The notes under the pieces: model-generated
Seen by the model: only the letters and a program-made list of their open reading frames with translations
Told to the model about the DNA's origin: nothing
The model's database searches: none
Part shown: positions 37,614 to 59,358 of the stretch, piece by piece
How positions within the stretch are numbered: the first letter of the stretch is position 1
How the letters are laid out: every line of letters starts with the position of its first letter
Assembly: GCA_021323865.1 (NCBI GenBank)
Contig: JAJPKF010000024.1
Coordinates: 73,207-137,206 of the forward strand
DNA: 64,000 nt
Reading direction: 5' to 3'
From: Pseudomonadota bacterium
GTDB lineage: Bacteria; Chloroflexota; UBA5177; JAJPKF01
Position numbers and translations under genes: made by a program

Positions 37614-37689
37614 GGGCCCGTAGCTCAGCGGTCAGAGCAGGGGACTCATAATCCCTTGGTCGCTGGTTCGAATCCAGCCGGGCCTACCA
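37614..37689 (+). tRNA. tRNA with CAU anticodon (tRNA-Ile2-like), element insertion site
   Basis: This is a 76-base tRNA with encoded CCA. The acceptor stem GGGCCCG pairs with CGGGCCT, leaving a G1-U72 wobble; the D arm is GCTC/GAGC. The anticodon arm GGGGA/TCCCT has loop CTCATAA with anticodon CAT at 37647-37649, and the T arm is GCTGG-TTCGAAT-CCAGC. The body resembles E. coli tRNA-Ile2 (GACTCATAATC and TTGGTCGCTGGTTC) more than elongator Met, so lysidine modification to read AUA is likely. Its 3' half is duplicated at 59314, marking an integrated element. In the second copy the base matching position 72 is C, which would restore a normal G-C pair. Confidence 0.93.
37645..37689 (+). repeat. 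Left attachment repeat (attL) in tRNA 3' end
   Basis: It starts CTCATAATCCCTTGG and ends ACCA. It matches the right copy over 40 bases, then differs once (T37685 against C59354) and matches ACCA again. It includes anticodon, T arm and acceptor 3' strand, so integration leaves the tRNA whole. Confidence 0.92.
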
Positions 37690-37835: not shown

Positions 37836-38306
37836 ATGAATGAGATACGTCTAAGCGTGAGCATGCCTCTCGACTCCGAGGGCTTCCTGAGGCGCAGATG
37901 TCAGTCGTGCTCGCGAGAGTTCAAGTGGCTGCACACGCCGGATGGCTCAGCCAACGCGGTTGCTCCTCCTCCTGGCGGTTATTACTGCCCCTACTGCGGA
38001 ATTCAGTCGCACGAATGGATGACCGACGCCCAGAGTGCTCTCGTGAATGAGACGGTTCAGCGCGAAGCAGTGCAGATTGCCCAACGACAACTCAACCAGG
38101 CAATGAAAGATGCCGTGCGAGGCTCAAAGTTCCTTTCGTACAAGGAGTCTCCGGGCAAGCCAATGCCAGAACCACACCCACTATCTGAAGACGACGACAT
38201 GAAACGGATCGATTTCCAGTGTCACCCTACTGAGCCGATCAAAATCGAGGAATCGTGGAGTGGCAGCCTCTACTGCTTGATTTGTTCCGCGGAAATCACT
38301 GTGTAG
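37836..38306 (+). CDS. Zinc-ribbon hypothetical protein
   Basis: This 156-residue protein of unknown role has three CxxC pairs (CQSC, CPYC, CLIC) and an isolated Cys, in two zinc-ribbon-like lobes separated by a helical stretch (ALVNETVQREAVQIAQRQL). It is the first gene inside the left end of the element. Its 3' end overlaps the convergent kinase gene by 11 bases, so the two may regulate each other by antisense. No homologous family comes to mind. Confidence 0.7.
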   Translation: MNEIRLSVSMPLDSEGFLRRRCQSCSREFKWLHTPDGSANAVAPPPGGYYCPYCGIQSHEWMTDAQSALVNETVQREAVQIAQRQLNQAMKDAVRGSKFLSYKESPGKPMPEPHPLSEDDDMKRIDFQCHPTEPIKIEESWSGSLYCLICSAEITV

Positions 38307-39666
38307 CGTCCGCGGTAGGCGGAGCCACACGGTTGGCGAATGTCGCCAACCCTTCCTGGACCTTGTCCCAGAGTTCGGCAATGGCCTCATTCACGATCCG
38401 AGCCGCGTCCATCGACTCGACGTCGGCGGCACGCTGCTCGATGTCGGAAACCATGTCGGCACCGCTCACTCCCGCATGTCCACATTGAACGAACGCGGAG
38501 ATAAACAGGCGCCCATCGCTGCGGAGCTCAATACTGCGGCTGACCTTCAGTTCGTACTCCAACCGACCCGGCTGACCCGAATAGATCCGGCTCATGCGAA
38601 CGTGACGAAGGACTTCTTCCGTGGCATAAGCCTCCTCACCGAACACTTGAAGAAGATTCCAAGACGCTTTGTCATCCTGTCGGTCAATCTCAGCATCGGA
38701 GCGAATATCCAGTAAGAGCTGATTGACTTTTTGGAACTCCTGCTGGAACTTTCGGATCAACTGTAATGCGGTCTGCCGCCTACGGTCCTGCAGGTCGCGC
38801 TTGTCGAGTTCTTCCTGAAGACCAAGTCGAAGACGTTCAAGGATTCCCGCAGCGACCGGTTTCCGCGAGTCGCTCTTCAATGTCAGCCAACCCGACAGGT
38901 CAGTCGAGACCTCGTTCATGGAAGGTCGATCACTCGGGTTCATCAGGGTCATGCGATCAATCAGACGGTCGAGTTCTGCCGCGAACGGATGGGGCCGTAA
39001 TGTGGATAACAGAAAGTCACGCTGCTGAATGCCTTGATGTCCCTCCGGAGGAAAGCGTTGCTCAGTGGCCAAGACCCACAAGGTCTTGGCCAGGGAATAA
39101 ACGTCGGCACGCATTGGGTCCGCCGTGTCTGGGGCGACGATCATTTCGTACGGGGCGAAGTGCAACGGTCCCATTGGCCGATTGCTTCGTGTCAGCTCCT
39201 CGACATCCGGGATATGGACGAGGCCAAAATCGCCAACGAGCCAGTCGCCACCGAGCGCATAGAGGTTGCCGGGTTTCACGTCCCGGTGAGCAAGGTTGTG
39301 TTCACCATGGACGACCGCAAGAGTAGCGGCGATGCGGGCGACAGCCTGCACAACCATCTCGAGGTCAGCATCCTCCAACTCTGCCTCGATCGGAGTCGCG
39401 AGTGGCATTGCCAGCCATGCACGATTTTCACGTGATGGCGACTCCGGAAGGTTGTACTCGAGCAACGGCAGTACACCGGGAACACCAGCTAGCCGTTGGA
39501 GCGCCTCGATCTCGTTACGAAAACGACGGTACGGTTCACCGGCTGCTCTTGCCGAGTTGAGAACTTTGAGGGCAACTGTATCGCCACCCCTATGACTCGC
39601 CCGGTAAACGGTCGCGTTACCGCCGGATCCGATCTCGTCTTCGATGACCCAATCGGCCAGTTTCAC
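38296..39666 (-). CDS. Hanks-type serine/threonine protein kinase
   Basis: This 456-residue protein has a kinase domain in residues 1-~290. The glycine loop is IGSGGNATVY, the ATP Lys is in VALKVL, the catalytic loop is HRDVKPGNLY and the metal loop DFG, followed by the Arg-containing RPSMNEVS end. The C-terminal ~170 residues are helical (LGLQEELDKRDLQDRRRQTA) with no transmembrane segment, so the kinase is cytosolic. The start is the GTG at 39666, set by AGGAGG five bases upstream; an ATG eight codons earlier lacks a ribosome site. Its place beside the integrase suggests an accessory or defence role, which is inference. Confidence 0.9.
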   Translation of the reverse strand: MKLADWVIEDEIGSGGNATVYRASHRGGDTVALKVLNSARAAGEPYRRFRNEIEALQRLAGVPGVLPLLEYNLPESPSRENRAWLAMPLATPIEAELEDADLEMVVQAVARIAATLAVVHGEHNLAHRDVKPGNLYALGGDWLVGDFGLVHIPDVEELTRSNRPMGPLHFAPYEMIVAPDTADPMRADVYSLAKTLWVLATEQRFPPEGHQGIQQRDFLLSTLRPHPFAAELDRLIDRMTLMNPSDRPSMNEVSTDLSGWLTLKSDSRKPVAAGILERLRLGLQEELDKRDLQDRRRQTALQLIRKFQQEFQKVNQLLLDIRSDAEIDRQDDKASWNLLQVFGEEAYATEEVLRHVRMSRIYSGQPGRLEYELKVSRSIELRSDGRLFISAFVQCGHAGVSGADMVSDIEQRAADVESMDAARIVNEAIAELWDKVQEGLATFANRVAPPTADATQ

Positions 39667-39733
39667 AAGTACCTCCTGGATTAGATGCAACGAACGCCTG
39701 TCCTATTTTCGCCTCGCGGTCAGGTCTTCGTTG

Positions 39734-40964: not shown

Positions 40965-41156
40965 TCATCGTCTGCATCGCCTGCATTCCGCCAGCTGCTC
41001 GACATCATCAGGTCCAGCGCCTTTCTTGCGTGAGCCGGAGTCGTTCCGACAATCCGCGCAGGTGCCGGAGAAATCAACCTCGGTCCACCAGCCACATTCG
41101 CGGCACCACCAATAAATGCGGAAGGGGTTGCCATCCCCGCTGGTCGCCTTCGTCAT
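40965..41156 (-). CDS. 63-residue zinc-ribbon protein
   Basis: This small protein has CRECGWW and CADCRND pairs plus a final CRRCRR, consistent with a zinc ribbon. Its ATG overlaps the TGA of the ssb gene by four bases (ATGA), which marks it as a real, translationally coupled gene. It ends 49 bases before the integrase start. Function unknown; a DNA-binding accessory of integration or replication would fit its neighbours. Confidence 0.75.
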   Translation of the reverse strand: MTKATSGDGNPFRIYWWCRECGWWTEVDFSGTCADCRNDSGSRKKGAGPDDVEQLAECRRCRR

Positions 41157-41542
41157 GACGACACCTCGTGCTCAGGCGCCTCGACAAAGGTGCCGATCGG
41201 TTCACTGTCGTGACTGGCGCTGTCGCCATGCGGCTCTCCCTTGACCGGTACGACGTGAGCGGCCACGAATCGAATGGAGCTGGCGCGCATGTGGTCGTTC
41301 CGTGAGGAAACGCCCGCCTCGATTCGCCCATCCACAAAGACCGGATCGCCGATTTTGAGCGACTCGGCCGCACGCTGTGCCGCAGCTGACCACAGGGTAA
41401 TGAAGTGGTAGTCGTTGCGACCGTCCCCGGAAGTTGACCGCCGCGTACTCATCCGCAAGAAACAGAAAGGCGTCCCTGATGCCGTTCGCAAGAACTCGGG
41501 TGAATGGCTGACGTGACCAAGCAGCTCAAACCGGTTGACCAT
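41153..41542 (-). CDS. ssb: Single-stranded DNA-binding protein
   Basis: This 129-residue OB-fold protein starts MVNRFELLGHV, a variant of the SSB N-terminus, with DYHFITLWSAAAQRAAESL and GDPVFVDGRIEAG as in the bacterial SSB core. The C-terminus (EHEVSS) lacks the usual acidic DDDIPF tail that recruits host repair proteins. The start follows AGGAGG by eight bases. It would cover single strands made while the element replicates or transfers. Confidence 0.88.
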   Translation of the reverse strand: MVNRFELLGHVSHSPEFLRTASGTPFCFLRMSTRRSTSGDGRNDYHFITLWSAAAQRAAESLKIGDPVFVDGRIEAGVSSRNDHMRASSIRFVAAHVVPVKGEPHGDSASHDSEPIGTFVEAPEHEVSS

Positions 41543-43131: not shown

Positions 43132-44949
43132 TCATTTCCGGTGAATACCTGAGTGACCACGCATCCACCACCACCGCAGCCGGTCAAGAGTGGATGGTTC
43201 GGGGCCATGAGTCGCTCCGACGGGTTCGACCTGAACAATGGCAGGACGCGAGCGGAAGACGGATCGGACAGCGACATACCCGGTCCGGAGCTCGCGCAGC
43301 TCGTTGGGATTGACGTGATAACTGTTCTGCTCGCGCGCGCTCGCCATCCCGGTCGGCCCCATGCTCTGCTCGATTTGGATCGACGCTTCCCAGCGCATCC
43401 GAGTACCGAACTGCGCGGCGATCACCTCGGCGTCGGCGGCTTCAATCCGGTGGGCGACGATCAGGCCGGCTTGGAGGACGGCCTGACGGATGTTCGTCGT
43501 CTCGGGGATGTACTGAGTCGAGACCAGCGTCGGCAGCAGGCCTTCACGTGCCTGCAGGAGCAGGTCGACGATCTGGTCCGCTTCCGGCAGCGCCGCGAAC
43601 TCATCGAAGACAACGAGCGTCGGAGTGAGCTGCTGTCCAGATCGGATGGCGCCGATACGACGGGCGCATTCCTGCTTCAGATCTTGGGCGACGACTCTGC
43701 CGAGTAGCTCGACGTCTTCGCTCGCGGCCGTGGCCGGCAGATTGACGTACACGACGGACGGTGACGTAAGGACCCGCGGCCAACTCAGGACTTCGCGGGC
43801 AGTATCGGGGGCGAGGAGCAGGTCACGAAACTTACCGTTGAGGAGCGCCATTAACCGAACACGGAGTCCTGCAATCCCGTCGCCGACAGCGCCGCGCTCT
43901 TCAGCCAACACCGTGAGCTCGCGGTGATAGGGCTCGCCGGCACGTTGACCGATTTGCCGCATGCGGCCGGGGATCAACCCTTCGGTCAGTGTTGCCAGAG
44001 TGATTGGCCCGTCGCCGGCTTGTTCCATCGCACGGACTACGGTGGGGATGACCATCATGGCGACGTGCTTGTAAAACTCGCCGCCTGACGTGCCGTAGTT
44101 GAAGATGCCGGTCAGCTTATTGGTGATGTCTGCGGCACTGCCTGTGCACACGTCGTAACCGATGGAGCCGGGATCGTTGGCATCGACGACATGGAGCGAG
44201 AGATCGTGGACGGCTGCGAGCGACTCGGCGATGTGTTTGAGACCGCCACCGCCCTTACAGTCGACGATCACGACGCCGAAGCGCGCCGCACAAACGCCAT
44301 CGGCAATGCGCGCGATGGTCGTGGTCTTGCCGCTTCCGCTCGCGCCCGGAAGAAAGATGTGATGCATAAGCTCATGCCTTTCGAAAGAGAAGATTTCTCG
44401 TGTTTCTCGGTCGATCCCGAGCGCGATCCGTGGCGTCGAATCGCTGTCAGTTTCTGAAGCGGTCGTTCGCGCAGTCGTTCGCAAGCCCGTCGTTGCAAGC
44501 ATGCGCAGCTCTGTTCTCCGTTGTTCAGCGCGCAACGCCGGCATGACTCCGACTCGTAACGCCGACGCCGCCGCTGCGCAAGCCAGCACCAAAACAGGAC
44601 CAAGGAGCGTCTCGATGGTTATGCCGAGTAGCAGATGAAGCGACGGGTAAACGGGGCCGATGCCGATGTAATGAAGGACGTTCTCGGTGTTGGGCCATGA
44701 GCGCCATAACCAGCCGGGCTCGACCACGACATGCGCGGCAAGGAAGAGGACAGCACACCCTGCACCGACGGCCCACCGAATAACTCGGGCCGGTCGAAGC
44801 GCCTGCGTGAACCACCAGAAGCATCCCGCCCCGATGAGTGAACCGGGATCGCTGACCGCGATGATGGTGCAGGCGACCATGCCAAAGACGCCGAGGTCAT
44901 GGATCACACGCTGGGCGTCGCGGTTGTACGCGAGACCGCCGGCCTTCAC
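43132..44949 (-). CDS. TraD/VirD4/FtsK-like DNA-translocating ATPase
   Basis: This 605-residue protein has an N-terminal membrane region of about four helices (residues ~10-135) and a cytoplasmic motor. Walker A is GASGSGKTTTIARIA, Walker B is PTLVVFDEFAALPEA, and VSTQYIPETTNIRQAVLQ resembles the TraG/VirD4 motif III region. It would couple the relaxed DNA strand to a transfer channel or pump double-stranded DNA. The GTG at 44949 overlaps the upstream TGA (GTGA), so the two genes are coupled; a longer frame to 45042 is only overlap. No secretion-channel genes are present. Confidence 0.88.
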   Translation of the reverse strand: MKAGGLAYNRDAQRVIHDLGVFGMVACTIIAVSDPGSLIGAGCFWWFTQALRPARVIRWAVGAGCAVLFLAAHVVVEPGWLWRSWPNTENVLHYIGIGPVYPSLHLLLGITIETLLGPVLVLACAAAASALRVGVMPALRAEQRRTELRMLATTGLRTTARTTASETDSDSTPRIALGIDRETREIFSFERHELMHHIFLPGASGSGKTTTIARIADGVCAARFGVVIVDCKGGGGLKHIAESLAAVHDLSLHVVDANDPGSIGYDVCTGSAADITNKLTGIFNYGTSGGEFYKHVAMMVIPTVVRAMEQAGDGPITLATLTEGLIPGRMRQIGQRAGEPYHRELTVLAEERGAVGDGIAGLRVRLMALLNGKFRDLLLAPDTAREVLSWPRVLTSPSVVYVNLPATAASEDVELLGRVVAQDLKQECARRIGAIRSGQQLTPTLVVFDEFAALPEADQIVDLLLQAREGLLPTLVSTQYIPETTNIRQAVLQAGLIVAHRIEAADAEVIAAQFGTRMRWEASIQIEQSMGPTGMASAREQNSYHVNPNELRELRTGYVAVRSVFRSRPAIVQVEPVGATHGPEPSTLDRLRWWWMRGHSGIHRK

Positions 44950-45629
44950 GGCCAGACCTTCACAGTAATCAGGTGGTCGGCGTACTCGCGAGCGACTAGC
45001 GTGCGCAGCCGTTCGGCGATCTTTGCGGTGGGGACAAACCACCAGACGTGGTCGTATGCCTCCGCGGTGTACGCGCGAATGATTGTTCCATAGTCCCGGG
45101 GGGCCTTCTTTACGAGATCAAGTTCAAGGGCGATCCGCTTGCCGTCGGGAAACGAGAGCAGACCGTCCGGGATGCGTCCGCGCCCGATGTCACGTTCGCC
45201 TGCTCGACGTGCGCGATGCAGCTCGCCACGGATCTCTCGCTCTGTCGTGACCGTTGCTGCTGGATGCTCTGCTTCCAGCTCGCCGAGCAGGTCCACAAGT
45301 TTCAGACTGTGGTTGACCTGTGACGGAACGATTCGAGCGGGCGATATTCCCAGCGCGACCAGACTCGCCCCGCGGCTCGTGACGCGGAGAAGCCGAGGCT
45401 CGTTGAAGAGCCATGGATCACTCTGCATCAGACGCAGGTCGATCAGCTTGGTGACACGGCGGTAGGCGGCACGTTTACCGTGAAAGAACTCGCGCTGGAT
45501 CTGGTCGATGGTCATGATCCCGTGCCGACACGTGCGGGTGAGTAACTCGAAGTCGCGCTCGGTTAACTGCCAGGGAGCGCGGCGCCGATACGTGTGAAGC
45601 TCGGCTGTGGATGATGGTCGGGTAGACAT
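44946..45629 (-). CDS. Replication-relaxation family protein
   Basis: This 227-residue protein begins with a winged-helix region (LTERDFELLTRTCRHGIMTIDQIQREFF, then RRVTKLIDLRLM), which is the hallmark of the Replic_Relax family found in actinobacterial integrative elements and plasmids. The second half (RIPDGLLSFPDGKRIALELDL) has the D...ExE-like pattern of PD-(D/E)XK nucleases, so DNA cutting is possible. It is coupled to the ATPase gene and sits where a relaxase would. Confidence 0.78.
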   Translation of the reverse strand: MSTRPSSTAELHTYRRRAPWQLTERDFELLTRTCRHGIMTIDQIQREFFHGKRAAYRRVTKLIDLRLMQSDPWLFNEPRLLRVTSRGASLVALGISPARIVPSQVNHSLKLVDLLGELEAEHPAATVTTEREIRGELHRARRAGERDIGRGRIPDGLLSFPDGKRIALELDLVKKAPRDYGTIIRAYTAEAYDHVWWFVPTAKIAERLRTLVAREYADHLITVKVWP

Positions 45630-45647: not shown

Positions 45648-45914
45648 TTAGGCGGCGTCGTTACGAGGTGAGACGTCACCGCCATTCGCGTTCTTTGCCG
45701 ATAAGGACTCAACGTACGCCTCGAGAGACGCTCTTCGGATGCGGGTCAGCCGCCCGATGTGCACGAAGTCGATCACATGCTGCTTGTTCGCCATGACGTA
45801 GAGCTGGGCACGCGATACCTGCAATAGCGCACACGCCTGGGAGACCGTGAGTAGCAGCGATTTCTCCGACGTCTTCTCGTCGATGGCCTCGCCGTCGGCA
45901 ACTAGAGGCGCCAT
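45648..45914 (-). CDS. Excisionase-like helix-turn-helix protein
   Basis: This 88-residue protein has a MerR/Xis-type helix-turn-helix: LLLTVSQACALLQVSRAQLY then FVHIGRLTRIRRASLEAYVE, the pattern of excisionase-family domains. I choose the ATG at 45914, which overlaps the end of the small membrane gene by 13 bases; the longer frame upstream has no family character. It probably directs the integrase toward excision and may bind the GTACAGT repeats near each end. Confidence 0.8.
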   Translation of the reverse strand: MAPLVADGEAIDEKTSEKSLLLTVSQACALLQVSRAQLYVMANKQHVIDFVHIGRLTRIRRASLEAYVESLSAKNANGGDVSPRNDAA

Positions 45915-46039
45915 CGGATGAATGCCAAGACGAGCTGTACGGCGAGTCGGAAAACGGTGAAGGCGATTTGGATCACCGGCCAGGGTCCAAGGAACCAGGC
46001 GACGGCGATCACGAAGAGGATGATCAAGGTAGTGGTCAT
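45902..46039 (-). CDS. 45-residue single-pass membrane protein
   Basis: This frame starts MTTTLIILFVIAVAWFLGPW and ends FIRWRL, with one or two hydrophobic helices and a basic tail. It lies in the minus-strand run between the 99-residue membrane protein and the excisionase gene and overlaps the latter by 13 bases. Function unknown; the position suggests a transfer or exclusion accessory. Confidence 0.55.
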   Translation of the reverse strand: MTTTLIILFVIAVAWFLGPWPVIQIAFTVFRLAVQLVLAFIRWRL

Positions 46040-46121
46040 GACTTTCCGTCTCTGTCTGTGTCTTCGTGGATGAGCGGGAGCGTGAGCGCGTGGTCGCACT
46101 CACGCTCCCCGTCAGGCTGTT

Positions 46122-50441: not shown

Positions 50442-51857
50442 TTAGGCTCGCCAGACCACGTTGACCCGGCCTGGTTCTCTGTACCGGCCTTTTCCAACGC
50501 GCCGAATCTCGATGTGATCGATAACCGTGCTGATAATCGAACGCTGCTGGTCGACTATCAGCGAAGGCCAAACGTGACGAGGCTGTTCTTCACCGGCGAG
50601 AGCGTGAAGTCGCTGTATCTCTGCATCAGTCTGAAGTTCAGACAACGCGGCTTGAATCCTCGCTTCTACCGGCTCGCGAGCCGCGAGCCATTCCGGCAAT
50701 GTGATCGCTCTATGAGCGTAAGCCGCAGCAATCTCTTCTAACTGTTGGCGATCGCTCTCTAGTTCTTGCAGACGCTCATGCCGGCCACGGAGTGCGTCTG
50801 CGTCTAATCCTCCAACCCGAAGATTTCCGAGGGCAGCAAGCACCGCCTCGCTCATGAGTGACTCTACGAATGCGGCGTTGATACTCACGCGTCCGCACCC
50901 TCGATTCGGGTAGGGATAACACCAATAGATCCTCCCGCGGTTGTGTCTCGGCGTCCCGGCGACTAATGGGGCGCCACACTCACCGCATCTGAGTAGGCCG
51001 CTCAGCAGGTATTTCCGCTTCCAGTGCTTGCCGGTCTTTCGCCTCTGAAAGAACGAAACAACCTCGTCGTACTCCGCCTGCGTGAAGATGGCTGGCCAGG
51101 CCGCGGCCGTCCGGCCACCCGTCGACAGCATGACCAAGCCCGCCACTCTTGGGTTGGTGAGGGCGCGTGTGAGTGACTTGCCGCACCATCCCTTGCCCGC
51201 AGTGGTGAGCTCGCCACTCCGGTTCAGAGAAAAGCAGATCGACCGGAGCGACTCGCCACTTAGTAGCCGCGATCGTGCTTCTCGAAGAACCGCAGCTTCA
51301 TGTGACACCACAGTTAGACCATCCCGCTCGTAGCCATAGGCTCGGCAACCGCCGCCCAGCGGTAGTCCCTGCTTGCGCCGCTCTTCCTTCTGTCGTCGAA
51401 TCCGCCGCGACTTGTGCTCGCTCTCCATGCGAGCGACTGCTCCGAGAATGCGCGCGTGGAGTCTGCCCTCTGGAGTGGAGAGATCGTGGTCCCCCGACAC
51501 CGACGCCAACTGCACGCCCTGTCGCTCCACAAGATCGATGAACGATTCGAGCTCCCGGGGCTGACGGTGCAGACGGTCCAGGTGCCAGACGACAACCGCC
51601 CGAATGAGACCGGCCTCGATGTCCTCACACAGGCGCTTGTACTGAGGACGCGGTTTGCCGCTGTAGGCGCTGATGTCGTTGTCGGTGTACACGTCAAACA
51701 GCTTCCAGCCCTGGCGTCCGACGATGGCTAGACAATCTTGCCGCTGGCGCTCTACCCCGAGGCCAGCGCCTTCTCGGTCTTCTGAGATGCGGCAATAGAT
51801 GCCAGCGGAAGGGGGCATGTGCGGAAGTCGCTGGAGAAAGGCCGGTTGTGACTCCAT
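50442..51857 (-). CDS. Large serine recombinase
   Basis: This 471-residue protein has an N-terminal resolvase domain (GIYCRISEDREGAGLG, Ser nucleophile in RIS; WHLDRLHRQPRELESF), a 'recombinase' domain (GKSLTRALTNPRVAGLV), a zinc ribbon (CGECGAPL ... CYPYPNRGCG) and a coiled-coil (HERLQELESDRQQLEEIAAA). It is a complete phiC31/TP901-type integrase. Its 5' end lies 130 bases from the stop of the isomerase gene. With a tyrosine integrase already present for the whole element, this one may have brought in the fluorinase cargo as a nested element. Confidence 0.93.
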   Translation of the reverse strand: MESQPAFLQRLPHMPPSAGIYCRISEDREGAGLGVERQRQDCLAIVGRQGWKLFDVYTDNDISAYSGKPRPQYKRLCEDIEAGLIRAVVVWHLDRLHRQPRELESFIDLVERQGVQLASVSGDHDLSTPEGRLHARILGAVARMESEHKSRRIRRQKEERRKQGLPLGGGCRAYGYERDGLTVVSHEAAVLREARSRLLSGESLRSICFSLNRSGELTTAGKGWCGKSLTRALTNPRVAGLVMLSTGGRTAAAWPAIFTQAEYDEVVSFFQRRKTGKHWKRKYLLSGLLRCGECGAPLVAGTPRHNRGRIYWCYPYPNRGCGRVSINAAFVESLMSEAVLAALGNLRVGGLDADALRGRHERLQELESDRQQLEEIAAAYAHRAITLPEWLAAREPVEARIQAALSELQTDAEIQRLHALAGEEQPRHVWPSLIVDQQRSIISTVIDHIEIRRVGKGRYREPGRVNVVWRA

Positions 51858-51987: not shown

Positions 51988-53118
51988 TCACTTGTGGACC
52001 GTCGGAGCCGCCGCGCCGACTGACCCCCTTCGCAGCGCAGCCCTCTTTGTAGCTTGCCGCAGACTCTCGCCGTATGGGGGACGGGCGACTCCCGCTTCAG
52101 TGACTATTGCGGTGATGCGTCTTGCCGGTGTTATGTCGAAGGCGGGGTTCATGGCAGGGACTCCCAAGGGCGCGACAGGGATCCCGCAAAATGAAGTTAC
52201 TTCGCGAGGGTCGCGCTCCTCAATCGGAATGAGAGTGCCATTGGTCGTTACAAGATCTAGTGAAGACGTTGGAGCCGCCACATAGAACGGGATCTCATGC
52301 GCCGCGGCCAACACAGCCAGGGAATACGTGCCAATCTTGTTTGCGATGTCGCCATTGGCTGCGACTCGATCTGCCCCAACAACCACGGCGTCTACGTCGC
52401 CTCGGCTCATAGCGTATCCGGCCATTCCGTCGGTGAGGATGGTTACTGGTACCCCAAGCACCGACAATTCCCAGCCGGTAAGACGAGAACCTTGCAGGAG
52501 GGGGCGCGTTTCGTCCACGAGCACGGAGACGTTTGGGTCGCGCTCGTGGGCCTTGCGGATGACCCCAAGGGCGGTCCCGTACCCTGCTGTCGCAAGAGGG
52601 CCAGTATCGCAGTGAGTGAGCACGTGTGATCTGCCTCGGAGCAGGTCCGCCCCGAACTCCGACAGGCGCATGTCGGCTTCTACCGATTCTTTGTGAATCG
52701 TCTGTGCCTCCTTGATCAAGGCAGTTTGGATGGCATTGATACCAACCTGACCACCAAGACTTTGGAATGTGCTTGCCATTCGCTCTACTGCCCATTCGAG
52801 ATTCATCGCCGTGGGGCGCGCACGAGTGAGAATTTCGCCGGCACGCGTCAGGCGTTGAGCAAGGTCGCGCCGATCTACCGCATGAAGCCCGGCCAGCGCC
52901 ATCCCATAGGCTGCCGTTATTCCGATGGCGGGAGCGCCCCGCACCTTCATCGCCCGTATGGCTTCTGCTACCTCGGCGGCGGAATCACACGAGATGACGA
53001 CTGAGCGAGCTGGAAGCTGAGTCTGGTCAAGGAGCTCGAGCGCTTCGCCTGTCCAGCAGACAGGTCGAAAAGGCGGGCCGGTGCCTCCGGGCAGGTCTTT
53101 CCATGCTCTCGGAGTCAG
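51988..53118 (-). CDS. mtnA: MtnA-like aldose-1-phosphate isomerase (predicted 5-fluoro-5-deoxyribose-1-phosphate isomerase)
   Basis: This is an eIF2B-alpha/MtnA family isomerase, which turns a 5-substituted ribose 1-phosphate into the ribulose 1-phosphate. Motifs are VRGAPAIGITAAYG, THCDTGPLATAGYGTALGV with the catalytic Cys, and GADRVAANGDIANKIGTY with the catalytic Asp. The ATG at 52950 would remove about 55 family residues (VCWTGEALELLDQTQLP and following), so the gene must begin upstream. The only usable in-frame start is a CTG at 53118 after GAGGGGCGG. An ATG at 53132 that overlaps the previous stop (ATGA) is out of frame, which hints at a frameshift. Its place in the fluorinase cluster suggests 5-fluoro-5-deoxyribose 1-phosphate as substrate; methionine salvage or a DHAP shunt is the alternative. 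Confidence 0.88.
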   Translation of the reverse strand: MTPRAWKDLPGGTGPPFRPVCWTGEALELLDQTQLPARSVVISCDSAAEVAEAIRAMKVRGAPAIGITAAYGMALAGLHAVDRRDLAQRLTRAGEILTRARPTAMNLEWAVERMASTFQSLGGQVGINAIQTALIKEAQTIHKESVEADMRLSEFGADLLRGRSHVLTHCDTGPLATAGYGTALGVIRKAHERDPNVSVLVDETRPLLQGSRLTGWELSVLGVPVTILTDGMAGYAMSRGDVDAVVVGADRVAANGDIANKIGTYSLAVLAAAHEIPFYVAAPTSSLDLVTTNGTLIPIEERDPREVTSFCGIPVAPLGVPAMNPAFDITPARRITAIVTEAGVARPPYGESLRQATKRAALRRGSVGAAAPTVHK

Positions 53119-55114: not shown

Positions 55115-57163
55115 TCAGTTGGCGCTCTCTTCCGCCTCGGCCTGCCTTATGGCGAACTCGAACGAGCAGCAAGCAGACCGGGGGTCCTTTCCCGCATTTT
55201 CAACTCCGCATTGCTTCCTGGTCACGCTGGCCCGGGGCTCTTCCACGAACGCTGCACGTGCCAGCTGCTCAAGCACCCCTTCGATGTATCCCTGCTCTAC
55301 GCTGCAGTAGCGACAGCTGTGATCGCCCACCCCTTTCGTCGCCATACCAGAGAAGAAGCTGTTTCGGATGCTCACATTGCCTGACTCACCTGTCTCGTTG
55401 GGTGATGCGCTCCACAAACCCCACCCCCCGCTGACATCAAACTTGCACCAGTTACCAATGAGCTTAGGCATGTCTGGCTCGGCTTCGCCTATCTCCCCCA
55501 AGAACCCCACAAAGTCCGTACCAAAAGCCTCCCCCATCTCTCGACCGACTTTTAGCTGGGCGTCTGGGTCACCCGAAACGAACTCCTCGAAGAGTCGGCG
55601 TAGGGTGTTCAGATTAAAGAAGACGTGCCGTAAGTTCTTGTTCCCGTGAACCCATTGGCCGTTCTCAGCATCCAACCACAACTGGGTTATGTGCAGCGGC
55701 TCGATTCCAGCATATGAAGTCATATCGATCGGTCCAGTAGTGGCTACCTCGCCTCGCAACTCATGGTCTAATTGGTAAGCAAGCTGCCCGGCTGATTGCT
55801 TGGTCCACGCCACCGGCGGATTGAGGTCATCAAATGTCTTTGCCCAAACAGGCACGTAATGGTCGTGCTCCTGGCACTGCTTCCACAGCTCCTGGACACC
55901 AGCGATCCCCTGATCGTTCATGAGGTGGTAGATGAGACCGCTGTTTTTATACTCATCACCGTCGCCGAGTACTCTGTTGAGAACTTCGGGTCTCAGGATG
56001 CCATTTTCAATAGCGCCGCGGTCGTCTTGGGCCGATATCCTCGTGACTACGCCAATGAGATGGTCGAGGCTTCGGACGCTGTACCTAAAGCGTGCGTTGT
56101 AAACGAAGCGCAGGAAGCTCGCCGGCGCCCTTAGAAGGCCAGGATCCTTACCCCTGGCTGCATCCTCGCCCGGCTCGCCAGTAAAGCCGGGGTCCTCGCC
56201 TCCGGCCGGACGTTCTTGCCCCGCCGGGCTTCCGGTCGAAAATCGCCGCCGCAACAGTGCGACCGCGATGCAGACTTTGTCGGTCTGCCGATGCTCCCCA
56301 GCAAGGCGTGGGATGCGAATGACCCCTCCGTTGACGCGCGAAATCAGGTCGACCAACTTCGTCTCACTGGCCTGGCCTACCGTCCCCTGCTCATCCATGT
56401 CGGCGGCGTCATCAAGAGCCGAGGGCAGGTCGGTATTGCTTCCTGATAAGACGATGACCGCCCGACCTAGCGTAAGCCTACGCGCACCCAACGCCATCTC
56501 CCCGTCCCACAGGAGTGGCAGTAGGAGGCTGTAGTTTCTGCTATCACTGTCAAACTCGTCCAAGAAGAGAAGGGGAACGCGGCCCGAGACCGTTACGTTC
56601 CTGGCCGAATCCAGTGCGGACGCCAAGTCGTCAGCGTCGCGCATGCTCGCCATGTTAAAGAGAATAGCCTCTACGGCGACCTTCAGCTTCCGGGACACGC
56701 ACTCCACGAAGTACGACTTGCCCTCACCCGGGCCTGCTATAAGAGCCAGATTGAGCGGTCTCGTGACGGACGCATCCTTGGCGTATCGCTCAATGGAGCG
56801 AACAACGCGTCCTATGTCCCGTATGTAACTGAAGTCAAGGGTCGCATATCCTGGCAAACTCTGGTCGCTCTTCTGGAGAGAGAAAAGAAACCGCGCCTCG
56901 TTCGCAAATCGATCATCTCCCTTAGACGTGCGGGCGAAAATAAGATCCCGGATGCGTCCCTGCGCAGTGGCGAGATCCTCCTGGCTCGGCTCAGCCTTCA
57001 GTTGTGCGACCTCGTCAGGTCCGTTCCAGAATGCGTTGCTCCGGGCACTCCGACCGAGCGTGCTGGAGCGGCGCGTCAGGCTCATGTCACTAGCCTTTGG
57101 CTGCCTCCTTCGAGGCTGTGGTTTACTCTGTGACTGCGATACGTTCGAGCCGCGGCGATGCAA
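55115..57163 (-). CDS. AAA ATPase fused to V4R-like sensor domain
   Basis: This 682-residue protein has a basic N-terminus and an AAA module with Walker A GPGEGKS (144-150) and Walker B LLFLDEFDS (198-206), followed by a long helical region with an acidic, Gly-rich insertion (~305-345). The last ~140 residues resemble a V4R (4-vinyl-reductase) ligand domain: WGLWSASPNETGESGN, NSFFSG, and CRYCSVEQGYIEGVLEQL with further Cys, which may bind metal. No sigma54-contact or DNA-binding domain is seen, so it is not a classical XylR regulator. Placed inside the fluorinase operon, it may remodel or sense something in the pathway; the role is unknown. The ATG at 57163 overlaps the deacylase gene by 41 bases; the ATG at 57085 (AAAGG upstream) is an alternative. 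Confidence 0.82.
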   Translation of the reverse strand: MHRRGSNVSQSQSKPQPRRRQPKASDMSLTRRSSTLGRSARSNAFWNGPDEVAQLKAEPSQEDLATAQGRIRDLIFARTSKGDDRFANEARFLFSLQKSDQSLPGYATLDFSYIRDIGRVVRSIERYAKDASVTRPLNLALIAGPGEGKSYFVECVSRKLKVAVEAILFNMASMRDADDLASALDSARNVTVSGRVPLLFLDEFDSDSRNYSLLLPLLWDGEMALGARRLTLGRAVIVLSGSNTDLPSALDDAADMDEQGTVGQASETKLVDLISRVNGGVIRIPRLAGEHRQTDKVCIAVALLRRRFSTGSPAGQERPAGGEDPGFTGEPGEDAARGKDPGLLRAPASFLRFVYNARFRYSVRSLDHLIGVVTRISAQDDRGAIENGILRPEVLNRVLGDGDEYKNSGLIYHLMNDQGIAGVQELWKQCQEHDHYVPVWAKTFDDLNPPVAWTKQSAGQLAYQLDHELRGEVATTGPIDMTSYAGIEPLHITQLWLDAENGQWVHGNKNLRHVFFNLNTLRRLFEEFVSGDPDAQLKVGREMGEAFGTDFVGFLGEIGEAEPDMPKLIGNWCKFDVSGGWGLWSASPNETGESGNVSIRNSFFSGMATKGVGDHSCRYCSVEQGYIEGVLEQLARAAFVEEPRASVTRKQCGVENAGKDPRSACCSFEFAIRQAEAEESAN

Positions 57164-57614
57164 TCGCTACGTAGTCGCGCGTCCTTAGTTCGAGGGAGCG
57201 ATCAAGCCGGGCGGCGTTAAAGTAAATATTCTCGTTGTCCAGCAGGGACGGATCGACTATCAGGACAAGATCCGGGTGAAAGGGGAAAGGCAGGACCGTG
57301 CCCGCAACGCTGCCGGCAAGACTCTCAGCCTTATCAGCAGAAGCCATCGACACGTAGGTACCACGGAAGAGATTCTTCACGGCATTCAGGTCAATGCGCT
57401 TATCGCCCGGGACGACTGCCAAGACCCACCTGGAGGTCTTCTTGCCCACCTTCACCATTACGATCATGCACTTAGCAGCTTGGCGCAGCTCGTTACCCCG
57501 CATTGGGCTGACGATGTCGGTCCGACCTTCGGCCGGATGATCGATCAGTCGATACTGTGCCTGGTGTTCGTCAAGAAGTACGATGAGCCGTGTGTAGGTA
57601 TCCGAATCGTCCAA
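57123..57614 (-). CDS. YbaK/ProX-family aminoacyl-tRNA deacylase (predicted fluorothreonyl-tRNA editing)
   Basis: This 163-residue protein belongs to the YbaK/ProX editing family, free-standing relatives of the ProRS insertion domain that hydrolyse mischarged tRNA. Signs are the conserved Lys in RQAAKCMIVMV (Lys48), VVPGDKRIDLNAVKNL, the GSVAGTVLPFPFHPDL loop and YFNAARLDRSLELRTRDY. The start is the TTG at 57614, set by GGGAGG seven bases upstream and only 4 bases after the fluorinase stop. Some family members (ProXp-ST) act on Ser/Thr-tRNA. S. cattleya, the known fluorothreonine producer, uses a trans-editing deacylase against fluorothreonyl-tRNA, so the same self-protection is the best guess here. 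Confidence 0.85.
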   Translation of the reverse strand: MDDSDTYTRLIVLLDEHQAQYRLIDHPAEGRTDIVSPMRGNELRQAAKCMIVMVKVGKKTSRWVLAVVPGDKRIDLNAVKNLFRGTYVSMASADKAESLAGSVAGTVLPFPFHPDLVLIVDPSLLDNENIYFNAARLDRSLELRTRDYVAIASPRLERIAVTE

Positions 57615-57618
57615 TGAG

Positions 57619-58797
<1,179 letters not shown>

Positions 58798-59313: not shown

Positions 59314-59358
59314 CTCATAATCCCTTGGTCGCTGGTTCGAATCCAGCCGGGCCCACCA
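59314..59358 (+). repeat. Right attachment repeat (attR), displaced tRNA 3' end
   Basis: This copy matches the tRNA 3' half from the anticodon loop to the end of the acceptor strand (40 identical bases, one change, then ACCA). It lacks the 5' half and so cannot make a tRNA. Its C59354, where the left copy has T, would pair with G1 and probably preserves the original chromosomal end. Confidence 0.92.

What the first reader, a model, noticed from the sequence alone, without database searches (positions are those of the whole stretch)
57123..57614. YbaK/ProX-type deacylase as self-protection against fluorothreonine
4-Fluorothreonine can be charged on tRNA-Thr and enter proteins. A trans-editing protein lies 4 bases behind the fluorinase, and some relatives (ProXp-ST) hydrolyse Ser/Thr-tRNA. 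The known producer protects itself with a tRNA deacylase; here an editing fold of the ProX type may have been recruited for the same task.
Basis: partly seen in the sequence, partly recalled or inferred. Interest (0 to 1): 0.82.

Follow-up and report, generated by a model that had tools for sequence, protein, structure and literature searches.

The report
Mobile fluorothreonine cluster with immunity gene
The gene is a close relative of FthB, the enzyme that protects Streptomyces cattleya from its own fluorinated amino acid, and here it sits with the fluorine-fixing genes on an integrated, mobile-type element in a bacterium that is probably of the phylum Chloroflexota.

Summary
In detail: on the minus strand a TTG-start gene at 57123-57614 begins 4 bases behind a fluorinase gene and encodes a 163-aa tRNA-editing (INS-fold) protein. 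It is an orthologue of FthB, not a separately recruited ProX-type fold: 66-67% identical to the editing protein beside the fluorothreonine transaldolase (FTase) of S. cattleya pSCATT, in one clade (92/93) with FTase-linked homologues. FTase and this protein occur together in 8 of 11 genomes or records and are both missing in the other 3; of 30 genomes of the Streptomyces order with the best homologues, only the 2 with 69-70% copies have FTase. New are host and vehicle. The phylum is inferred to be Chloroflexota; fluorinase, FthB, an AAA-like protein, FTase and an MtnA-type isomerase are cargo of a 21.7-kb element in tRNA-Met, with 40-bp exact attachment repeats, a tyrosine integrase and replication/transfer-type genes. 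A same-order relative carries another element, without these genes, in a tRNA-Met. The exporter FthC was not found. Activity on fluorothreonyl-tRNA is inferred, not shown.

The parts
57123..57614 (-). FthB orthologue, trans-editing aminoacyl-tRNA deacylase (163 aa, TTG start)
   Evidence: PF04073 65.5 bits; INS-type fold by model and PDB search; clade with FTase-linked homologues 92/93
57619..58722 (-). fluorinase (adenosyl-fluoride synthase)
   Evidence: TIGR04507 450 bits, cut-off 400; 68% identity to 5b6i and 1rqp stretches; catalytic positions kept, RNAA motif reads QNMA
55115..57163 (-). AAA-type ATPase-like protein of unknown role; ORF overlaps the end of fthB
   Evidence: PF00004 17.3 bits, below its cut-off of 21.2; no relative in 60 other genomes of the phylum, in the plasmid collection or in loci L003-L012
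53129..55096 (-). fluorothreonine transaldolase (SHMT domain + class II aldolase domain)
   Evidence: TIGR04506 758.9 bits, cut-off 650; both Pfam domains
51988..52950 (-). MtnA-type isomerase; the open frame continues upstream to about 53100 without ATG/GTG/TTG
   Evidence: TIGR00512 371.7 bits, cut-off 279; frame read
50442..51857 (-). large serine recombinase beside the cargo
   Evidence: Resolvase and Recombinase Pfam matches
45648..46103 (-). HTH_17 protein (excisionase-like)
   Evidence: PF12728
44946..45629 (-). Replic_Relax protein
   Evidence: PF13814 28.9 bits, cut-off 25.3
43132..45042 (-). TrwB/AAA_22-type DNA translocase-like protein
   Evidence: PF13401, PF10412 just over its cut-off; 3 TM-like stretches
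41153..41542 (-). single-strand binding protein
   Evidence: PF00436
39734..41134 (-). tyrosine integrase of the element
   Evidence: PF00589 82 bits; 41% identical over 356 columns to the integrase near a tRNA-Met in relative G003
37614..37689 (+). tRNA-Met (CAT), insertion site
   Evidence: ARAGORN, Rfam RF00005
37645..37684 (+). attachment repeat 1, 3' part of tRNA-Met
   Evidence: 40 bp exact copy at 59314
59314..59353 (+). attachment repeat 2, far end of the element
   Evidence: 40 bp exact; 45 bp at 98%

Best explanation
The gene encodes FthB: a stand-alone INS-fold deacylase that hydrolyses 4-fluorothreonyl-tRNA(Thr) and so keeps fluorothreonine made by its own operon out of proteins. 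It is probably co-transcribed and translationally coupled with the fluorinase, so that protection appears with the first step of the pathway. The operon (fluorinase, FthB, AAA-like protein, FTase, MtnA-type isomerase) is cargo of an integrative element that entered tRNA-Met of a bacterium inferred to be Chloroflexota. Shown by computation: family, fold type, orthology, co-occurrence with FTase, gene order, element ends. Inferred: substrate, protection in vivo, production of fluorothreonine, the operon as one transcript, mobility today.
For: Orthology: 66-67% identity to the pSCATT copy; the window and 7 other FTase-linked rows form one clade at 92/93 in a tree of 41 rows (9 linked, 32 not). 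Co-occurrence: FTase over its cut-off in 8 of 11 genomes/records, FthB at 58-100% identity in exactly these 8. Specificity: of the 30 genomes with the best homologues in the Streptomyces order, FTase only in the two with 69-70% copies. Fold: AlphaFold model pLDDT 81 for the best of five; top PDB matches include Cys-tRNA(Pro) deacylase and ProX. Lys48, in the place of the superfamily's conserved lysine (recalled), is invariant in 41 rows. Literature: FthB deacylates fluorothreonyl-tRNA and is ProXp-ST1-related (PMC7408626 and PMC11295145, passages). Element: 40-bp att repeats, integrase near the tRNA, Replic_Relax, TrwB-like, SSB, and a parallel element at a tRNA-Met of a same-order relative.
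Against: No activity data. The McMurry and Chang 2017 paper is not held, so that the pSCATT protein is FthB rests on its place between FTase and the EamA transporter. A FthC homologue 56-79% identical to the pSCATT one is in 6 of 6 other actinomycete FTase genomes, but the best in the window's genome is 33%, on another contig; the genome is 92% complete. Homologues at 58-64% without FTase are common in the Streptomyces order, so the fold alone does not fix the substrate. Actinopolyspora mzabensis has FTase, yet its copy falls outside the clade (one clade of all nine is not rejected, p-AU 0.235). The fluorinase has QNMA where 10 of 10 other aligned rows have RNAA. FTase is only 46-52% identical to its relatives.
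Confidence: 0.85

Rival explanations
1. It is a general ProXp-ST1-type proofreader of Ser- and Thr-mischarged tRNAs that sits beside the fluorinase by chance.
For: Many genomes of the Streptomyces order carry 46-64% identical homologues, and 28 of the 30 with the best matches have no FTase; E. coli YeaK (ProXp-ST1 by recall) is 39-40% identical.
Against: The window copy lies inside the FTase-linked clade; gene and FTase are present and absent together in 11 of 11 genomes/records; it lies in the fluorinase gene row.
Confidence: 0.1
2. It is a YbaK Cys-tRNA(Pro) or ProXp-ala deacylase.
For: Same superfamily and fold.
Against: TIGR00011 45.7 bits against a cut-off of 153.25; closest relatives are the FTase-linked proteins; the genome has another, higher-scoring tRNA_edit protein elsewhere.
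Confidence: 0.03
3. The cargo is a decaying relic: the operon no longer makes fluorothreonine and FthB has no present role.
For: FthC not found, RNAA changed to QNMA, no close relatives with which to test selection.
Against: The cargo frames are open; fluorinase, FTase and MtnA pass curated cut-offs and FthB passes Pfam's; catalytic positions of the fluorinase are kept; fthB has a ribosome-binding-site-like GGGAGG.
Confidence: 0.12

Closest known systems
FthB, fluorothreonyl-tRNA deacylase of Streptomyces cattleya (McMurry and Chang 2017, not held; known here through passages of PMC11295145 and PMC7408626)
   Same: INS superfamily, 66-67% identity, linked to FTase, one clade
   Different: Here directly behind the fluorinase, TTG start, without FthC, in probable Chloroflexota, on a tRNA-integrated element
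ProXp-ST1 (E. coli YeaK, name matched by recall) and ProXp-ST2
   Same: Same superfamily; Ser/Thr-tRNA deacylases (PMC11295145, passage)
   Different: 39-40% identity to YeaK, whose neighbours are not fluorine genes; ProXp-ST2 was not compared
Fluorinase loci of Paractinoplanes deccanensis, Nocardia brasiliensis and Streptomyces iconiensis
   Same: Fluorinase, FTase, FthB and an MtnA-type isomerase
   Different: Here one row of genes on one strand with an AAA-like protein, on a 21.7-kb element, without FthC; PNP-family genes, beside the fluorinase in two Streptomyces loci, are on other contigs here
Integrative elements of the actinomycete (AICE) type (features recalled)
   Same: Tyrosine integrase, tRNA att site, Replic_Relax, TrwB-like protein, HTH excisionase-like gene
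   Different: In probable Chloroflexota, with organofluorine cargo; transfer not tested

Membership tests
FthB | INS/tRNA_edit domain and fold | tested here: met
   PF04073 over cut-off; model and PDB matches
FthB | orthology with the FTase-linked protein of S. cattleya | tested here: met
   66-67% identity; clade 92/93
FthB | genomic link to FTase | tested here: met
   same gene row; same 8 of 11 genomes/records
FthB | hydrolysis of fluorothreonyl-tRNA(Thr) | not testable with these tools
   needs an enzyme assay
4-fluorothreonine locus as reported (fthB and fthC conserved; PMC7408626, passage) | exporter FthC (EamA) | tested here: not met
   best match in the genome 33%, on another contig; no EamA match among the element ORFs scanned
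YbaK Cys-tRNA(Pro) deacylase | TIGR00011 score over 153.25 | tested here: not met
   45.7 bits
fluorinase | TIGR04507 over 400 bits and catalytic residues (residue roles recalled) | tested here: met
   450 bits; D16, Y77, T80, S158 kept
fluorinase | C-terminal RNAA motif (PMC12871659, passage) | tested here: not met
   QNMA; 10 of 10 other aligned rows have RNAA, L010 not among them. The same paper gives another motif for an archaeal fluorinase, so the motif is not absolute
fluorothreonine transaldolase | TIGR04506 over 650 bits, SHMT plus aldolase domain | tested here: met
   758.9 bits; both domains
tRNA-integrated mobile element | integrase near a tRNA and direct repeats of the tRNA 3' part at both ends | tested here: met
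tRNA-integrated mobile element | empty site in a relative | not tested
   relatives' tRNA sites were listed but no empty homologous site was shown; flanking genes of the window did not match in L151
tRNA-integrated mobile element | excision and transfer | not testable with these tools
   needs excision PCR or mating

The most novel reading that the evidence does not exclude
A self-contained, horizontally mobile 'poison plus immunity' cassette for organofluorine chemistry: one integrative element delivers fluorination, fluorothreonine synthesis and the fluorothreonyl-tRNA deacylase together, explaining how the rare fluorinase trait crosses phyla, with the AAA-like protein as a new working part of the pathway (regulation, export or tolerance in place of FthC).
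Probability: 0.4. Interest if true: 0.72.

Novelty: new member of a known kind. Interest (0 to 1): 0.55.

Why it matters
Natural organofluorine synthesis is very rare, and FTase homologues are reported mainly from actinomycetes (PMC7162832, passage). A strongly diverged cluster in what is probably another phylum, with its immunity gene directly behind the fluorinase and on an integrated element, offers a natural vehicle for spread, diverged fluorinase, FTase and FthB for biocatalysis, and a set of homologues with and without FTase for finding how FthB tells fluorothreonine from threonine.

Tried and rejected
Considered and rejected: YbaK Cys-tRNA(Pro) deacylase; AlaX-type deacylase (the only Pfam match is tRNA_edit); independent recruitment of a ProX fold. 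A defence-system reading found no support: PADLOC gave no match for the 10 proteins given.

Led nowhere: the AAA-like protein has no relative in 60 other genomes of the phylum, five of them of its order, in plasmids or in loci L003-L012, and its single-sequence model was useless (pLDDT 32); a fluorinase search of plasmids gave no match at E 1e-40; fluorinase and FTase trees left the window unplaced on a long branch, so I claim no donor. Six columns that mark the clade are a lead only; A. mzabensis shares only one of them (L23).

Rows and limits: in the FthB tree L085 (the window's own sequence), L097/L115 (internal stop), exact duplicates and homologues under 90 bits were left out. Of the 32 rows labelled as without FTase, 27 come from genomes tested; the other five (L096, L098-L101) are plasmid-collection records for which the label rests alone, where only the two S. 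cattleya records hold most of FTase, so the rest of those genomes was not tested. L011 was not held for the whole-genome counts. The genome scan did not list S. cattleya, a known fluorinase organism, so it is not complete. Of the 12 genomes six had no dehalogenase match; I had picked the six small ones expecting Dehalococcoidia.

Full report
Observation. Positions 57123-57614 hold no open plus-strand frame. On the minus strand a gene runs from TTG 57614 to a stop at 57123 (163 aa), four bases behind the fluorinase gene 57619-58722. GGGAGG stands immediately before the fluorinase stop codon, upstream of the TTG, and the S. cattleya homologue aligns from the same point. The protein has a Pfam tRNA-editing domain (65.5 bits, cut-off 25.5) and fails the YbaK equivalog (45.7 against 153.25).

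Surroundings. The same strand carries a fluorinase (450 bits against 400), a 682-aa protein with a weak, sub-cut-off AAA match, a fluorothreonine transaldolase (758.9 against 650) and an MtnA-type isomerase (371.7 against 279). The fluorinase is 68% identical to stretches of two solved fluorinases and keeps D16, Y77, T80 and S158; the RNAA motif named in PMC12871659 (passage) reads QNMA, against RNAA in 10 of 10 other aligned rows. The residue numbers and roles are recalled; the alignment is.

Relatives. A scan of genome contigs with a fluorinase alignment found 10 loci: nine matches over the whole fluorinase domain, 61-68% identical (eight in actinomycetes, one in a Peptococcaceae bacterium), and one 27-residue match. 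S. cattleya is not in that list, so the scan is not complete. Within 10 kb an editing protein 58-71% identical to the window's lies near five of the nine, with a sixth (N. brasiliensis) cut by the locus end. Over whole genomes or records, FTase passes its cut-off in 8 of 11, and the editing protein at 58-100% identity, the window's own included, is in exactly those 8. The three without FTase have no full-length match near that: G404 has a 44-residue match with a stop and a 31% match, the other two none. One locus (L011) could not be searched; neither gene was found within its 10-kb flanks. One of the 8 is S. cattleya pSCATT, where the protein lies between FTase and an EamA transporter; fthB and fthC are reported as conserved in the loci for fluorothreonine (PMC7408626 and PMC7162832, passages).

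Is it specific? Of 293 genomes of the order of S. morookaense, 77 have a homologue at E 1e-40, 46-70% identical. Of the 30 genomes with the best matches, 2 have FTase, and these hold the only copies above 64%. A tree of 41 rows puts the window and seven other FTase-linked proteins in one group (92/93), next to four rows without FTase. The FTase-linked copy of Actinopolyspora mzabensis falls outside, although one clade of all nine is not rejected (p-AU 0.235). Of the 32 rows labelled as without FTase, 27 were tested by genome and five only by plasmid record. Six columns separate the eight from 30 unlinked rows (L23, P37, M38, A104, H113, D115). A104 stands just before G105-T-V-L-P109, which I recall as the GXXXP substrate loop of this superfamily; residues 31-37 of the model are of low confidence. 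This is a lead for fluorine selectivity, not a result.

Fold. A model built from six sequences, the window's included (pLDDT 81 for the best model; the five range from 32 to 81), matches APE2540, Cys-tRNA(Pro) deacylase, ProX and, lower down, ProRS chains; 37 PDB matches have E up to 0.001.

Known context. [quoted passage not shown] The original paper is not held.

Vehicle. tRNA-Met lies at 37614-37689. Its 3' part recurs exactly over 40 bp at 59314-59353 (45 bp at 98%), which bounds 21,709 bp. Between the copies lie a tyrosine integrase, SSB, a TrwB-like protein, a Replic_Relax protein, an HTH_17 protein, a serine recombinase and, at the far end, the fluorine genes. GC is 0.594 inside, 0.658 in the left flank and 0.612 in the right flank. 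In same-order relative G003 a tRNA-Met and a 49-bp exact second copy of its 3' part lie 14.4 kb apart. Between them is an integrase 41% identical to the window's, the only one of 22 window proteins with a match in that stretch, with a Replic_Relax protein, a protein with a HerA match just under its cut-off, a C5 DNA methylase and a Vsr gene. The window's flanking genes did not match there, so the two chromosomal sites are not shown to be the same, and no empty site was shown. The window element is thus an integrative element of a recurring kind with organofluorine cargo.

Host. Of 12 genomes tested, the six small single-contig ones of the same phylum have 8-19 reductive dehalogenase matches each, the other six none, and 14 control genomes none. 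This points to Dehalococcoidia and so to Chloroflexota (inference; genome sizes up to 13.7 Mb in the phylum, fit Ktedonobacteria by recall). One of 400 genomes in the phylum search passes the fluorinase cut-off, the window's own.

What is missing. FthC is 56-79% identical to the pSCATT one in 6 of 6 other actinomycete FTase genomes, but at best 33% in the window's genome, which is 92% complete. Among the element ORFs scanned none is a recognisable exporter; of the element proteins only the TrwB-like one has several TM-like stretches and one small ORF has one. PNP-family genes exist on other contigs. FthB without FthC suggests that the deacylase is the indispensable part of tolerance (inference).

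Novelty. Paper searches of the held library showed no report of fluorothreonine genes in Chloroflexota or on an integrative element. Listings were seen, and passages of PMC7408626, PMC7162832, PMC11295145, PMC12871659, PMC12350317, PMC10018355, PMC6299022, PMC4071589 and PMC4859513; other listed papers were not opened, and most subscription journals are not in the library. PMC7162832 (passage) says FTase homologues are mainly from actinomycetes, with one in Candidatus Kentron without flA, fthB and fthC. The protein is a new member of a known kind; host and vehicle are the surprising part.

Noticed in passing
window 55115-57163 (-): AAA-like protein inside the fluorine gene row without detectable relatives in the sets searched; role unknown.
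   Followed up: partly
window 50442-51857 (-): Large serine recombinase directly beside the fluorine cargo, besides the element's tyrosine integrase; possibly how the cargo entered the element.
   Followed up: no
window 38296-39690 (-): Ser/Thr protein kinase-like gene between tRNA-Met and the integrase.
   Followed up: no
L151 2509-16957 (relative G003): Different element at a tRNA-Met, bounded by a 49-bp exact repeat, with a related integrase and C5-methylase/Vsr genes.
   Followed up: partly
L099 5995-6507: FthB-like gene on a Streptomyces sp. NBC_00376 plasmid, next to an MFS transporter and near a FAD monooxygenase and two ABC-F genes: possible self-protection in another biosynthetic cluster.
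   Followed up: no
L100 2323-3483: YbaK-family gene near AMP-binding and type I PKS genes on a Rhizobium lusitanum plasmid: possible editing-type self-protection.
   Followed up: no
L092 (G404, the genome of L007, Actinoallomurus): 44-residue FthB-like match (52%) with a stop codon in a fluorinase genome that has no FTase over the cut-off; may be a remnant.
   Followed up: no
L010 and L012: A fluorinase match and a 27-residue fluorinase-like match in Bacillota genomes without FTase over its cut-off and without an FthB match.
   Followed up: partly
window 57619-58722 (-): Fluorinase with QNMA instead of the RNAA motif; solved fluorinases match residues 48-338 of 367, so both ends extend further.
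   Followed up: partly
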